Notes under the pieces: generated by a model
The model's input: only the letters and a program-made list of their open reading frames with translations
Databases searched by the model: none
What the model was told of the DNA's origin: nothing
Position numbers and translations under genes: made by a program
Assembly (NCBI GenBank): GCA_902785355.1
Contig: CACZYF010000020.1
Location: 1-32,210, forward strand
Direction of reading: 5' to 3'
Length of the DNA stretch: 32,210 nt
DNA from: an uncultured Ruminococcus sp.
Lineage (GTDB): Bacteria; Bacillota; Clostridia; Oscillospirales; Acutalibacteraceae
In this document: positions 3,551 to 15,468 of the stretch, piece by piece
How positions within the stretch are numbered: the stretch's first letter is position 1
Layout: each line of letters starts with the position of its first letter

Positions 3551-4018
3551 ATGTTCAGAAGAATCACCGAAAATGACTGGGAGCTGTATCGCCGATACGT
3601 CGATACCTTCTACCATACCGACGCGGTCAATGCTCCCGTACCCGTTGAGAATTATCGTGCGACCTTTGACGAGATGCTGCACTCCGACACTTATGTAAGA
3701 GGTTATATCTTTGAATATGAAGGAACGCCCTGCGGCTTTGCGCTGCTGTCCAAGACCTTCTCTCAGGAGGCGGGCGGTATCTCAATCACGATCGAGGAGA
3801 TCTATATCGACCCCGAATATCGTTCCAAGGGGCTTGCGACAGAGTTCTTTGAGTGGCTCAAGAACGAGTCCTGCGCGATGCGCCTGCGCCTTGAGGTCGA
3901 GGATTACAACAAAGGCGCCATGCGACTGTATGAACGCATGGGCTTTGAGCTGCTGCCGTATCTGCAAATGGTCATCGACAGGCAGCGACAGGAGAAAAAG
4001 CATGATGAAAATGTCTAA
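3551..4018 (+). CDS. GNAT family N-acetyltransferase
   Basis: 155-residue GNAT-fold acetyltransferase, which would transfer an acetyl group from acetyl-CoA to an amine. The acetyl-CoA binding motif A appears as [19 protein letters not shown] (R/QxxGxG/A loop as RSKGLA), followed by the beta5-alpha4 segment with [14 protein letters not shown], the usual C-terminal signature. The substrate is unknown; the N-terminal half ([15 protein letters not shown]) is typical of GNATs annotated only at family level. AAGGAG (3533-3538) is 12 bases from the ATG, somewhat far. Its last 17 bases overlap the start of the ubiquitin-dockerin gene, in a different frame, so the two are probably translated together. 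Confidence 0.88.
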
Positions 4019-4568
4019 GATACTTGCGTTTGGGCTAGCGGTCATCCTGTTGGTTTCTGCGATTACGGTCGGATTTTCCGCGGCAGAGATCGATCTCGTA
4101 CCGTCGGGCATGCAGATCTTTGTCCGTACGCTGACCGGCAAGACCGTCACGCTGGATGTAGAATCCAACGATACCATCGAGAATATCAAGCAGAAGATAC
4201 AGGAGAAAGAGGGGATACCGCCCGATCAGCAGCGATTGATCTTCGCGGGTAAACAGCTCGAGGACGGCAGAACCCTCGCCGATTATAACATCCAAAAGGA
4301 AAACACCCTTCATCTGGTGCTCCGTCTGCGCGGGATCCTCGGCGATGCCGACAGTAACGGAGAGGTCGAAATCGTTGACGCGACCTTGATTCTGCGGTAT
4401 AACGTTCTGATGATCGGAGAAGGCGCCATCAATACGCAGCTTGCCGATGTTGACGACAGCGGTGAGGTCGATGTGATCGACTCTACGCTGATCATGCGCT
4501 ATCTGAGTACGATCCCTACCGCGTATCCGATCGGAGAGTACCGTTCTGCAACACCCGATCAGCAATAA
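4002..4568 (+). CDS. Secreted ubiquitin-dockerin fusion protein
   Basis: 188 residues in three parts. Residues 1-28 form a signal peptide (MMKMSK, hydrophobic core, SAA cleavage region). Residues 37-112 are a ubiquitin: aligned by eye, 65 of 76 positions match human ubiquitin, with differences at ubiquitin positions 6, 13, 16, 19, 20, 26, 28, 32, 57, 65 and 76. The Leu8/Ile44/Val70 patch and Lys11, 27, 29, 33, 48 and 63 are kept; Lys6 is Arg. The C-terminus reads LRLRGI, so Gly76 is lost, and runs straight into a dockerin (residues 114-175) with two calcium-loop repeats, [19 protein letters not shown] and [24 protein letters not shown] (3990-3994) lies 7 bases before the ATG, inside the acetyltransferase gene, which it overlaps by 17 bases. 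Ubiquitin is a eukaryotic protein, so lateral acquisition is inferred; dockerins bind cohesins on cellulosomes or cell surfaces. Base composition resembles the neighbours, so the transfer is not recent. Confidence 0.95.
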
Positions 4569-4782: not shown

Positions 4783-6489
<1,707 letters not shown>

Positions 6490-12054: not shown

Positions 12055-15000
12055 ATGGATATCACCGAGAAACAGCTCGGCACCATGACCGCCTATCTCG
12101 GAGGCAACAACGGAAAGTTCTCTATCCTGAAGAACAGCTGCGCTACCGTAGCCCTGCGCGCGTGGAACGCCGCGGTCGGTACCAAGGACGGCGAGCCGAA
12201 CGCCTATTACCTGACCTCTACCGGAAACGGTATTCTCTCGATCATCGACGCGCCTAAGGGCGTTCGCGACAGCATCAAGAACCGTCTCCCCGGCTACTAT
12301 CTCAACAACGCCGAGGGCGTAGCGGAGCCCGACGCAGGCTTCGAGGATGAGACCGGCTGGGTCTATGTCAGCGCGCCCGAGAAGGTCGCTCCCGTAAACT
12401 ATACTTATGCTGATAAAGCTGTACAGGTCGATGAGGATCTGACTGCTTTGACTCCGCTTGTTACGTCAGCTAAAGCCGGTAAGGGCATTTATTATAATAA
12501 GGATGAGCAGGAGATCGGCGTTGACGTACAGGCTGACAGCAGCGAGATCACCGGCATCAACTTTATTATCAACGGTCAGACCGTGACCCTCGACGGTTCG
12601 AATATGCCGGAGAAAGGTATCTGGTTCAAGACCGCTGTGAAGGATGCCGAAGAAGGCGTAAACTACTATGTCACCGACGCCGACGGTAAGGCGCTGCCGA
12701 GCTACTATGACAACGGTGAGGTCACCTTCCGCGCGGATACGCTCCCGCAGAGCTACAAGATCGTATCCGGTAAGGAGGGCTCCAAGAATATCCTTCGCGT
12801 CAACAACAATATCCCCGAGGGTGTTCAGATCACCGCCGAGGTCTACTATAAGGAGGACGGTCAGAAGATCGCCGTCGATAAGGTTGCCGAGCTCCAAAGC
12901 GGCACCAAGATCTATGTCAAGCCCGATATCTCTTCCCTCGAGATCAGCCATATGATCGAGAGTATCGACATCGACGGCATGAATATCTATGAGGAAGAGG
13001 ATTTTGACGCTGAAGAGGGCGCATACTGCGGCTTGATGCCTGATAATTACGCCGAGCTGAACATCAGTACTGTCGAGGCTGAGATCGAGCCCGCCAAGGA
13101 TGGTATGATTCAGATCTTTGTCGGCGATACGCTGAACGTTGAAGAGTACACGCATCTCTATACGGACGGCGATAAGGAGGGCTATGTTCTCGATGAGACG
13201 GAATGGGAAATCATTCACGACGAGAACGGAGCACTCGAGGGTGAGGGCAGCGAGCTCAAGGCTGTCAAGGAAGGCTCCGCCGTGCTTTGGGCGCGCGCCA
13301 AGAAGAACCCGAACATCGGCGCAGCGTTCATGATCGACGTTCTCGGCAACCGTTCCGACTACGCAGCCGTTACCTTTAACGGCGAAACGGGGGAGAACTA
13401 CGTCCTTCATAATGTTACCGAAGAGAACAACACCGTCATCCCGTACTCCGGCTATCTCGTCAAGAAGGACACCGAGGTCAATATCTATCCCCGTAATACC
13501 GGAAACAAGGCGGTGTTCGCTGTTCTGTGCAACGGTGAGGCGCTTTCCGTCAATGAAGAATTTGAAGGCCCCTGCATCGCTTCAATCCCCGCCGATACCG
13601 ATCTCGATATCGCCGTGACCTTTGCCGAAGCACAGATTAAGGGCTTACCTAAGGATATCAAGTTTGAGAGCAAGGACGATACCTATCAGCTTGAGGCTCG
13701 TACTGTATATAACGGTCTGCTCGGTATCGTCGGCGCGTGGGATGACCGTATCCGTTATACCGCCTCAAATGATCTTATCAGCGTCGATAAGAACGGTCTG
13801 ATCACCGTGACCGATGAGATTCCCGAGGACGGCGCCGCTGTCATCGTGACCGCATACGTCCCCAGCACACCTGAGCTTTCTGCGACCACCAAGATCATCT
13901 TAGGTGACTGCAAGGGCGACAAGATCGTCGGCAGACTGACCATCTCTGCCCGCCCGATCACCAAGGCGCAGCTGATCGCGCACGGCGCCGTTACCTTCAC
14001 TCCCTACGAGGATATGGAGCTGCCCGTCAGCTATTATCGCTACTACAAGCCCAACGAGAAATATGACGCGCTGCTCAAGGATTACGCAGAGAATCCCGAG
14101 AATTATTCCTCCGATCCCGCTCTTTACAACGATAACGAGCTGGGTCTTGAGGATCGCGAATCCTACTTCGATATCGTCGAAGGCGGCATCGGTATCGAGC
14201 CTCAGATCATTTCTCTCAAGAGCGGCGAGAGCATCACGATGTCTAACTACGGCTATGACGAAGGCAGAGTTGAGGTGATCTTGAGCGTATTGGAGAACAG
14301 TGATATCTCCTCCGTCGAGCAGGCTCAGATCCTGATCGAACAGCTTCGGAGCTATATCGAGGACGGTACAGTCGATGAAAACGCGACCTTCGACAGCCTT
14401 GCGGACGTCCTTAAGACGATCATCACTACATCCCGCAAGACCGGTGAGAATCCCGTCAACGGCCGCAGCGAAGGCGGTTTGGATATCAACCGCGAGATGT
14501 ATAACCAGTTCAGAAGACCTGATTCCCAGCTCCCGAACAACTATTACTCCGTTGATATCACTGCCGACGAGCTCGAGATGATGAAGGCGTATATTGCCGA
14601 TCCCGATAATAACTACTATTCCCTTATGGATAAGAACTGCGCGACCGGTTCCGTCGATATCTGGAACGCGACCCTCGCCGATAAGCCCGAACTGAAGCTC
14701 ACCGGTAACTACACCGGTATCGCTGTCGAGCCTGAGTCCCTGTATATCGAGCTCGGTCTCTTAGCCCGCAAGCAGAACCTTGACGGCGAAAGCGGCAAGG
14801 ACTTCTATCCCCGCTCCGTCGCTCACCCGATGTCTTATGCCGAGCTGATCGAAGCGATCGACAAGCTCGGCGAGCCCGAGCTGACCGATGAATACAAGGC
14901 TCAGCTTGACGAACTGCTTGCCGCATATCATGATCTGAACGGTACCGAGCAGAGTTTGGTAACTAACTCCGACAAGCTCTTTGATTCGATTCAGGCGTAT

Positions 15001-15468
15001 GAAGATATGCTTCATGAAAAGGATCTTGAAGCGTTTGACAAGTACGTAGCGGATAAGCTCGCTTATGTTGACTCTCTCGCTCAGGATGGCGACAGTGAAG
15101 TCAGCAAGCTGCTGATCTCCGCCGCTAAGACTGCGATCACCGCGATCCCTTACGACACGGAGAAGAGTCTTGAAGAGAATAAGGCGGATATCGCGAAGCT
15201 TGTCGCTATCCTCGAGCAGGTGCTCGACGATCGCCGTTATCAGGAGCACCCGATGCTCGGCGACGTTGACGTTGACCGTGATGTTACCGCCGCTGATGTT
15301 ACCTTCATCCAGCGTAACGCTGCATGGATGTTGACTCCGCTTTCCTGTAACTTTGCCGCCGCAGACACCGATGAGGATGGTACAATGTCCGTCATGGACG
15401 CAACCATGCTCCAATACTGGTTGGCTGATATGCCCGCGAACGAAAATATCGGCAAACCGATCAAATAA
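12055..15468 (+). CDS. Long secreted dockerin protein, continuation after the TAG
   Basis: In the same frame as the preceding part; the first ATG after the TAG is at 12055 but has no SD or signal peptide, so independent translation is unlikely. It completes the first domain copy with Cys in LKNSCATVALRAWNA (Cys323 of the joined frame), continues through beta-rich segments including Ig-like stretches, and carries a second domain copy (HGAVTFTPYEDM; GGLDINREMYNQ; MDKNCATGSVDIWNA). A helical region follows, then a C-terminal dockerin with two calcium loops (LGDVDVDRDVTAADVTFIQR and DTDEDGTMSVMDATMLQYW). The His...Asn-Cys pattern recalls papain-like or LRAT/DUF4105-like cysteine enzymes, but I cannot name the family. 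The 3.4-kb intact frame argues that the TAG is recent, read through, or an error. Confidence 0.8.
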   Translation: MDITEKQLGTMTAYLGGNNGKFSILKNSCATVALRAWNAAVGTKDGEPNAYYLTSTGNGILSIIDAPKGVRDSIKNRLPGYYLNNAEGVAEPDAGFEDETGWVYVSAPEKVAPVNYTYADKAVQVDEDLTALTPLVTSAKAGKGIYYNKDEQEIGVDVQADSSEITGINFIINGQTVTLDGSNMPEKGIWFKTAVKDAEEGVNYYVTDADGKALPSYYDNGEVTFRADTLPQSYKIVSGKEGSKNILRVNNNIPEGVQITAEVYYKEDGQKIAVDKVAELQSGTKIYVKPDISSLEISHMIESIDIDGMNIYEEEDFDAEEGAYCGLMPDNYAELNISTVEAEIEPAKDGMIQIFVGDTLNVEEYTHLYTDGDKEGYVLDETEWEIIHDENGALEGEGSELKAVKEGSAVLWARAKKNPNIGAAFMIDVLGNRSDYAAVTFNGETGENYVLHNVTEENNTVIPYSGYLVKKDTEVNIYPRNTGNKAVFAVLCNGEALSVNEEFEGPCIASIPADTDLDIAVTFAEAQIKGLPKDIKFESKDDTYQLEARTVYNGLLGIVGAWDDRIRYTASNDLISVDKNGLITVTDEIPEDGAAVIVTAYVPSTPELSATTKIILGDCKGDKIVGRLTISARPITKAQLIAHGAVTFTPYEDMELPVSYYRYYKPNEKYDALLKDYAENPENYSSDPALYNDNELGLEDRESYFDIVEGGIGIEPQIISLKSGESITMSNYGYDEGRVEVILSVLENSDISSVEQAQILIEQLRSYIEDGTVDENATFDSLADVLKTIITTSRKTGENPVNGRSEGGLDINREMYNQFRRPDSQLPNNYYSVDITADELEMMKAYIADPDNNYYSLMDKNCATGSVDIWNATLADKPELKLTGNYTGIAVEPESLYIELGLLARKQNLDGESGKDFYPRSVAHPMSYAELIEAIDKLGEPELTDEYKAQLDELLAAYHDLNGTEQSLVTNSDKLFDSIQAYEDMLHEKDLEAFDKYVADKLAYVDSLAQDGDSEVSKLLISAAKTAITAIPYDTEKSLEENKADIAKLVAILEQVLDDRRYQEHPMLGDVDVDRDVTAADVTFIQRNAAWMLTPLSCNFAAADTDEDGTMSVMDATMLQYWLADMPANENIGKPIK

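What the first reader, a model, noticed from the sequence alone, without database searches (positions are those of the whole stretch)
4002..4568. Secreted bacterial ubiquitin fused to a dockerin
A near-eukaryotic ubiquitin (65 of 76 positions as in human, counted by eye) sits between a signal peptide and a dockerin in an ordinary Clostridia operon. Dockerins normally carry plant-cell-wall enzymes to cohesins. Placing ubiquitin there suggests a displayed or released mimic or bait for eukaryotic ubiquitin-binding proteins, for instance of gut protozoa, fungi or the host. Bacteroides fragilis is known to secrete a ubiquitin homologue, but I know of no characterised ubiquitin-dockerin. The interaction partners are inference.
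Basis: partly seen in the sequence, partly recalled or inferred. Interest (0 to 1): 0.96.

Follow-up and report, generated by a model that had tools for sequence, protein, structure and literature searches.

The report
Exported bacterial ubiquitin with docking module
A gut bacterium encodes an almost eukaryotic ubiquitin with an export signal and a docking module that should hang it on the outside of the cell; related proteins carry other anchors, which suggests that bacteria took ubiquitin from eukaryotes and put it to a new, still unknown use outside the cell.

Summary
Window 4002-4568 (+) encodes 188 aa: signal peptide, spacer, ubiquitin (4110-4334; 65 of 76 positions as in human) and a type I dockerin. 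Contamination is very unlikely: an independent contig carries the gene (93%) in the same order, congeners show the site without it, and the cultured Ruminococcus albus 7 has a leader-ubiquitin protein on a complete plasmid. It belongs to a family of bacterial ubiquitins, mostly placed at or near the end of a leader and joined to dockerins, S-layer domains, LPXTG-like tails, an autotransporter barrel or a T9SS tail. Selection holds the ubiquitin tightly (median dN/dS 0.03; in eight dockerin members 95% identity against 42% for the dockerin part). Two members carry trichomonad-type ubiquitin, pointing to more than one capture. Against simple mimicry, the Ile44 face is not specially conserved, Lys48 changed about ten times and Gly75-Gly76 survives in 3 of 48. 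Best reading: a non-conjugatable, surface-tethered ubiquitin binding head with an unknown partner.

The parts
3551..4018 (+). GNAT-like acetyltransferase gene; its end overlaps the start of the ubiquitin gene (probable operon)
   Evidence: ORF; relatives in congeners. The GNAT name is by eye/recalled; no family search was run on it.
3990..3995 (+). ribosome-binding site AGGAGA
   Evidence: sequence
4002..4568 (+). ubiquitin-dockerin gene with export leader, 188 aa
   Evidence: independent copy L029
4002..4082 (+). signal peptide, probable cleavage FSA|A after residue 27
   Evidence: hydropathy peak 3.22 over 12 residues; cleavage site by eye, no signal-peptide program run
4083..4109 (+). 9-residue spacer AEIDLVPSG, similar in L030, L031, L072 and others
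   Evidence: alignment A3
4110..4334 (+). ubiquitin domain M1-G75; position 76 is Ile
   Evidence: PF00240 108.4 bits; 65/76 to human
4335..4565 (+). type I dockerin; calcium-loop repeats at 4344-4406 and 4446-4508
   Evidence: PF00404 29.1 bits; repeats by eye; solved dockerins incl. R. bromii Amy12 9qfa, 26.6 bits
4590..4616 (+). terminator-like hairpin and T-rich tail after the gene
   Evidence: (3 terminator-like sites in the region, 1.1 expected by chance): weak
4783..6489 (+). trypsin/HtrA-like serine protease gene, right border of the insertion site
   Evidence: ORF; next to the acetyltransferase gene in congeners without the ubiquitin gene. HtrA name by eye/recalled.

Best explanation
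The gene makes an exported ubiquitin whose dockerin should plug it into a membrane-anchored, cohesin-bearing protein of the same cell. Ubiquitin thus becomes an outward-facing, non-conjugatable binding head on the cell surface. Shown from sequence: the ubiquitin and dockerin domains, a probable signal peptide, cohesins in the same genome, loss of Gly76, strong selection specific to the ubiquitin part, several anchoring modes among relatives, and a trichomonad-type ubiquitin in two members. Inferred: that dockerin and cohesin really pair, that the ubiquitin binds a specific partner on a protist, fungus, host cell or rival bacterium, and that across the family binding is not mainly through the classical Ile44 face.
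For: Domains. Cohesins in the same genome: four hits, three over the cut-off; two of the proteins end in a hydrophobic stretch plus lysines, read by eye as membrane anchors. Selection: of 263 pairs of ubiquitin domains at least 88% identical, the 123 with a finite dS have median dN/dS 0.032 and the other 140 are saturated. In eight dockerin members (28 pairs) median identity is 95% for ubiquitin, 42% for the part behind it, 28% for the leader, so the conservation is not inertia. Other members keep a ubiquitin domain with only 44-57 of 76 identities to human, so tight conservation is not needed for the fold. Different anchors: Pfam dockerin in 16 of 54; SLH in four proteins (L058, L062, L166, L169); LPXTG-like tails in 3 (one LPXTG, two SPXTG) and a Cys-plus-hydrophobic tail in 6 of 62 ORFs that reach a stop; autotransporter L064 (assigned by eye) and T9SS tail L067. 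L004 and L006 match 5xy3_m (T. vaginalis ribosome entry) best among single-ubiquitin chains: 141.1 vs 123.6 bits for the human 76-mer, and 130.1 vs 116.2 (L004 against itself 150.2).
Against: No partner was identified and no structure could be predicted. The Ile44 face changes at least as often as other exposed sites (6.6 vs 4.5 changes per site over 49 rows, 4.8 vs 2.9 outside the main clade), so no classical ubiquitin receptor is implied. Surfaces that look conserved (TEK box p 0.02, 0.03, 0.09; F4/K63 face p 0.07, 0.02, 0.47 for all rows, rows outside the main clade and main clade) were chosen after the fact and are weak. Dockerin-cohesin pairing was not tested. 36 of 62 ORFs fell in 'other' in the anchor sorting (it includes the SLH, autotransporter and T9SS ones), so not every member has a recognised anchor. 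Divergent members (for example L173, L174, L175, L069) have the domain far inside the protein, not behind the leader.
Confidence: 0.5

Rival explanations
1. Eukaryote-directed mimic: the displayed ubiquitin engages ubiquitin receptors of ciliates, trichomonads, fungi or the mammalian host through the classical face.
For: Window protein keeps L8, R42, I44, G47, K48, Q49, H68, V70 and R72. Trichomonad-type ubiquitins in two members suggest contact with protists. Several record titles name ruminant gut samples. The R. albus ubiquitin gene is separated by two genes from a PI-PLC-domain gene.
Against: Across 49 domains the Ile44 face is not more conserved than other exposed sites (one-sided permutation p 0.97) and K48 changed about 10 times. 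Members also occur in a pond Rhodobacter and an Epilithonimonas isolate (titles), and a divergent one in a Pseudoalteromonas from abalone.
Confidence: 0.3
2. Stability cap: ubiquitin is a small, very stable, protease-resistant fold used to protect the N-terminus of surface proteins.
For: Position at or near the end of the leader with unrelated partners; several of the little-changed sites are ones I recall as structural (T7, G10, K11-E34, D58, Y59; 0-3 changes each).
Against: Domains with 44-57 of 76 identities to human are kept in other members, yet in the dockerin members the domain stays about 95% identical while synonymous sites are near saturation; exposed Q2, F4 and R72 do not change in the 30 main-clade rows.
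Confidence: 0.3
3. Antibacterial protein like BfUbb of Bacteroides fragilis, but tethered: ubiquitin acts on neighbouring bacteria.
For: BfUbb is a secreted ubiquitin whose mature form begins at Met1, lacks the terminal Gly and inhibits other B. fragilis strains (PMC5705921, passages). An unnamed relative (G093) has four tandem genes with bacteriocin-type double-glycine leaders (by eye), three of them with a detectable ubiquitin domain; a CTB-bacteriocin model matches one leader below its cut-off (18.5 vs 32 bits).
Against: The dockerin should tether this protein; no immunity gene is evident by eye; no target is known to me in Gram-positive neighbours.
Confidence: 0.25
4. Assembly artefact or eukaryotic contamination.
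For: The domain is nearly eukaryotic in sequence; one family row, L063, has no leader and may itself be contamination.
Against: Independent contig with the same gene order; site without the gene in congeners; GC3 of the ubiquitin part 0.71, against 0.61-0.75 for leader, dockerin and three neighbouring genes; complete R. albus 7 plasmid with a relative.
Confidence: 0.01

Closest known systems
BfUbb, secreted ubiquitin of Bacteroides fragilis (PMC3352274, PMC5705921; passages read)
   Same: Near-eukaryotic ubiquitin made by a gut bacterium behind a signal peptide, lacking the C-terminal Gly pair
   Different: BfUbb is a free 76-residue protein found outside the cell; here ubiquitin is fused to a dockerin or other anchors, in Clostridia and other phyla, with several sequence types. 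PMC5705921 itself says that B. [quoted passage not shown] The Nat Microbiol paper on its target (Jiang et al.) was seen only as a citation and is not held; that the target is a peptidyl-prolyl isomerase is recalled.
Dockerin-borne components of cellulosomes and of the R. bromii amylosome (names recalled)
   Same: Leader plus C-terminal type I dockerin in a genome with 62 dockerin hits and cohesins
   Different: The cargo is ubiquitin, not an enzyme or carbohydrate-binding module
Ubiquitin family protein WP_013483628.1 of Ruminococcus albus 7, plasmid pRUMAL01 (annotated)
   Same: Signal peptide directly followed by ubiquitin (66 of 76 to human, 60 of 76 to the window)
   Different: C-terminal part is a beta-type domain shared with neighbouring secreted proteins (by eye) instead of a dockerin
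Secreted ubiquitin extension proteins of plant-parasitic nematodes (described in PMC5705921, passage)
   Same: Secreted ubiquitin with a C-terminal extension
   Different: Eukaryotic effector whose 12-aa extension is cleaved off; here position 76 is Ile and the extension is a dockerin

Membership tests
Ubiquitin family (PF00240) | Score over Pfam cut-off | tested here: met
   108.4 bits vs 25.4
Ubiquitin as a conjugatable modifier | Free or releasable C-terminal Gly75-Gly76 | tested here: not met
   RLRG-Ile, fused to dockerin; GG in 3 of 48 family members
Ubiquitin as a conjugatable modifier | Conjugating enzymes in the same genome | tested here: inconclusive
   No PF00179 hit in the own genome, but the control genomes gave none either; E1, E3 and deubiquitinases not searched
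BfUbb-type secreted ubiquitin | Signal peptide followed by near-eukaryotic ubiquitin without terminal Gly pair | tested here: met
   (with a spacer of 9 residues here; leader judged by hydropathy and by eye)
BfUbb-type secreted ubiquitin | Free 76-residue protein | tested here: not met
   Dockerin attached
BfUbb-type secreted ubiquitin | Antibacterial activity | not testable with these tools
   needs a bench assay
Type I dockerin protein of a cellulosome/amylosome | Two calcium-loop repeats, PF00404 over cut-off | tested here: met
   29.1 vs 22.9 bits; repeats [12 protein letters not shown] and [12 protein letters not shown]
Type I dockerin protein of a cellulosome/amylosome | Binds a cohesin of the same cell | tested here: inconclusive
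   Four cohesin hits, three over cut-off; two proteins with a C-terminal membrane anchor by eye; binding itself not tested
Bacterial ubiquitin-like conjugation or defence systems (Bil, Bub and the like; names recalled) | Match to a defence-system protein model | tested here: not met
   No PADLOC match at E 0.01 for 4 of 4 proteins; none of the nearby ORFs looks like E1/E2 by eye, no family search on them

The most novel reading that the evidence does not exclude
Gut and other bacteria have captured ubiquitin from eukaryotes more than once, trichomonads among the donors, and turned it into an extracellular, surface-tethered recognition head that can be plugged on to many kinds of anchor (dockerin, S-layer, sortase-type, autotransporter, T9SS). 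Its partner is read through a face other than Ile44, so this would be a second, non-conjugating use of ubiquitin in biology, with contact between cells as its purpose.
Probability: 0.35. Interest if true: 0.95.

Novelty: new variant of a known kind. Interest (0 to 1): 0.86.

Why it matters
Ubiquitin is held to be a eukaryotic intracellular modifier; the one bacterial case with a worked-out activity that I know of is BfUbb. A strongly conserved family of exported, apparently anchored bacterial ubiquitins would show that the molecule has been recruited again for work outside the cell, in gut communities of starch and fibre degraders. One member sits in a cultured strain with a complete plasmid sequence, so its function is open to direct test.

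Tried and rejected
Contamination or chimera: rejected.

Phage or mobile-virus origin: in viral contigs 11 stretches matched a pattern but none was confirmed as a relative; no match in phage records. Plasmid records: R. albus 7 and a divergent Pseudoalteromonas protein; a second Pseudoalteromonas record appeared with the longer R. albus query.

Classical Ile44-face conservation: I expected it and did not find it. Site classes (core, Ile44 face, F4/K63, TEK) are recalled, not computed from a structure.

Synteny in full: the acetyltransferase search gave 18 congener loci. Six (L145-L150) keep amidohydrolase, acetyltransferase and protease together without a ubiquitin gene; in the other 12 (L151-L162, more distant acetyltransferases) those neighbours were not found, so they say nothing about the site; L152 has a dockerin-like stretch nearby. 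The gap was measured in five of the six; L148 was not measured.

Unresolved: the donor of the main (Arg6) ubiquitin type. No single solved sequence stands out for the window or for R. albus. The tree of 50 rows has 5 well-supported of 45 inner branches, so the number of captures rests on the trichomonad-type match, not on the tree. L084, which groups with L004 and L006, was not compared with the solved sequences.

Rows: 67 distinct domains; 45 of them in the dN/dS count; 49 bacterial rows with at least 75 bits, no large gap and 72 residues in the tree and site counts (L011, L014, L016, fragments and the divergent rows left out; R. albus was found later and is not in them). The 'main clade' is 30 rows: those with Arg6 plus L031 and L045; it includes L082, which the tree puts outside its 29-row fork. 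L063 (no leader, possibly contamination) was kept in. L065 is probably a fragment of the L031 gene, so the 17 dockerin ORFs are about 16 genes. The dN/dS values are NG86 on 72 codons and some dS values are plainly unreliable. Some dockerin ORFs were cut by the ends of the stretches I fetched.

PF00179 had no positive control.

Full report
What is there. The gene at 4002-4568 on the + strand has an AGGAGA ribosome-binding site, begins inside the end of an upstream acetyltransferase-like gene and encodes 188 residues. In order: a hydrophobic leader ending FSA|A (by eye), the spacer AEIDLVPSG, a ubiquitin domain from Met1 to Gly75 (4110-4334), and directly after it a dockerin with two calcium-loop repeats. 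Residue 76 is Ile instead of Gly.

It belongs to this genome. The window lies in a 2.23 Mb, 98.98% complete genome with one ubiquitin hit. An independent contig, L029, has the same gene (93% over 188 residues) with the same three neighbours at 97.8, 98.7 and 98.1%. Of 18 congener loci with the acetyltransferase, six keep the order amidohydrolase, acetyltransferase, serine protease without a ubiquitin gene between (the other 12, with more distant acetyltransferases, lack these neighbours). In the five measured, the gap is 136-243 bases against 764 in the window and in L029. GC3 of the ubiquitin part is 0.71, against 0.61-0.75 for leader, dockerin and the three neighbours. R. albus 7, a cultured strain, has a leader-ubiquitin protein on its complete 420,706-base plasmid, annotated 'ubiquitin family protein'.

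Where it should go. The genome has 62 dockerin hits. In 62 ORFs with a dockerin-like stretch Pfam at E 1e-5 finds Dockerin_1 in 48, CBM26 in 8, LRR_5 in 7 and alpha-amylase in 6, and no cellulase or hemicellulase family among the 25 listed. This looks like a starch amylosome of the R. bromii kind (name recalled; one weak solved match of the dockerin is R. bromii Amy12). Four cohesin hits, three over the cut-off, are present; two of the proteins end in what looks by eye like a membrane anchor and a third runs off its contig. Inference: the dockerin hangs ubiquitin on such a protein. Pairing was not tested.

A family. One scan of genome contigs gave 42 loci. PF00240 hits at E 0.001 occur in 20 of 398 genomes sampled from the family, 5 of 394 from the order and 5 of 299 from the phylum, each count including the window's own genome and some weak, divergent hits. 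In 60 genomes of the genus at least 12 have a match over the ubiquitin part (the list was cut). Of 49 near-eukaryotic domains, 30 have an Ala-ending AxA-type triplet right before Met1 and 13 a spacer ending in Gly as in the window (triplet counts); the remaining six differ. Divergent members can have the domain deep inside the protein (L173, L174, L175, L069). The C-terminal partners differ: dockerin in 16 of 54 by Pfam, S-layer domains in four, LPXTG-like tails in 3 and a cysteine-plus-hydrophobic tail in 6 of 62 ORFs that reach a stop, an autotransporter barrel and a T9SS tail in one each. Thirty-six of the 62 fall in 'other' in that simple sorting, which includes the S-layer, autotransporter and T9SS ones. 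Record titles name goat, sheep, buffalo and roe deer guts, and a pond; cow rumen (RUG codes) and freshwater (RH codes) are recalled from the codes.

Selection. The window's ubiquitin and those 94-97% identical to it in protein differ at 54-79% of comparable fourfold sites. Of 263 pairs at least 88% identical, 123 with finite dS have median dN/dS 0.032 and 140 are saturated (NG86 on 72 codons, rough). In eight dockerin members the median identity is 95% for ubiquitin, 42% for the part behind it and 28% for the leader. Recent capture or recent module exchange does not explain this; function does.

Not ubiquitin's usual function. Over the tree of 49 bacterial domains the Ile44 face (recalled set) changed 6.6 times per site, other exposed sites 4.5 and the core 2.0; K48 changed 10 times, V70 10, H68 8. 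In the 30-row main clade the Ile44 face changed 1.9 and other exposed sites 1.5 times; outside it 4.8 and 2.9. Yeast is sensitive at R42, I44, K48, G75 and G76, and at L8 and V70 under stress (PMC4862753, passages). Gly75-Gly76 is kept in 3 of 48 and Gly75 in 28 of 48. The window itself keeps the whole Ile44 face. TEK-box sites are little changed (p 0.02 for all rows, 0.09 in the main clade), but that class was picked after seeing the data.

More than one capture. L004 and L006 carry a ubiquitin whose best single-ubiquitin match among the solved sequences is 5xy3_m: 141.1 against 123.6 bits for the human 76-mer, and 130.1 against 116.2; L004 against itself scores 150.2. 5XY3 is a T. vaginalis ribosome (PMC8215155, passage). 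In the window's own search 5xy3_m is not among the best 60 of 306. L004, L006 and L084 form a supported group (99/96). The simplest reading is a separate capture from a parabasalid; one bacterial ubiquitin plus convergence, or transfer the other way, is less likely but not excluded.

How it probably works. Shown from sequence: ubiquitin, dockerin, lost conjugation end, strong selection on the ubiquitin part, several anchors. Inferred: a displayed binding head. I put 0.5 on a specific binding head; the eukaryotic-partner (0.3) and bacterial-partner (0.25) rivals overlap with it, and the cap has 0.3.

What is known. Searches for ubiquitin with dockerin, rumen, Ruminococcus, gut bacteria, amylosome and R. 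albus listed no paper that describes such a protein (listings only, open-licence library; 20 of 39 and 15 of 235 shown). The characterised relative is BfUbb, and the R. albus protein is annotated by name only.

Noticed in passing
   Followed up: partly
L190 3953-10273 (Ruminococcus albus 7 plasmid pRUMAL01): The ubiquitin gene sits in a run of leader-bearing proteins, several sharing a beta-type domain (PTYTVTIPASV, by eye), with a PI-PLC-domain gene and a dockerin gene nearby.
   Followed up: partly
L047 7033-7620 and 7608-8171: Two tandem, overlapping open frames with leader-ubiquitin of different types (Lys6 and Arg6) and similar C-terminal parts by eye.
   Followed up: no
L048, L053, L055, L060: Verrucomicrobia- and Lentisphaerae-titled (or unassigned) records carry Arg6-type ubiquitin with a short C-terminal part ending in a similar F(F/Y)KxF motif by eye; suggests transfer between phyla.
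   Followed up: no
window 12055-15468: A second dockerin protein, 1137 aa, with no other Pfam family at E 0.01.
   Followed up: no
L061 1799-2416 and 2727-3341: Actinobacteria-titled contig with two ubiquitin open frames, no evident signal peptide by eye, sharing the same C-terminal part.
   Followed up: no
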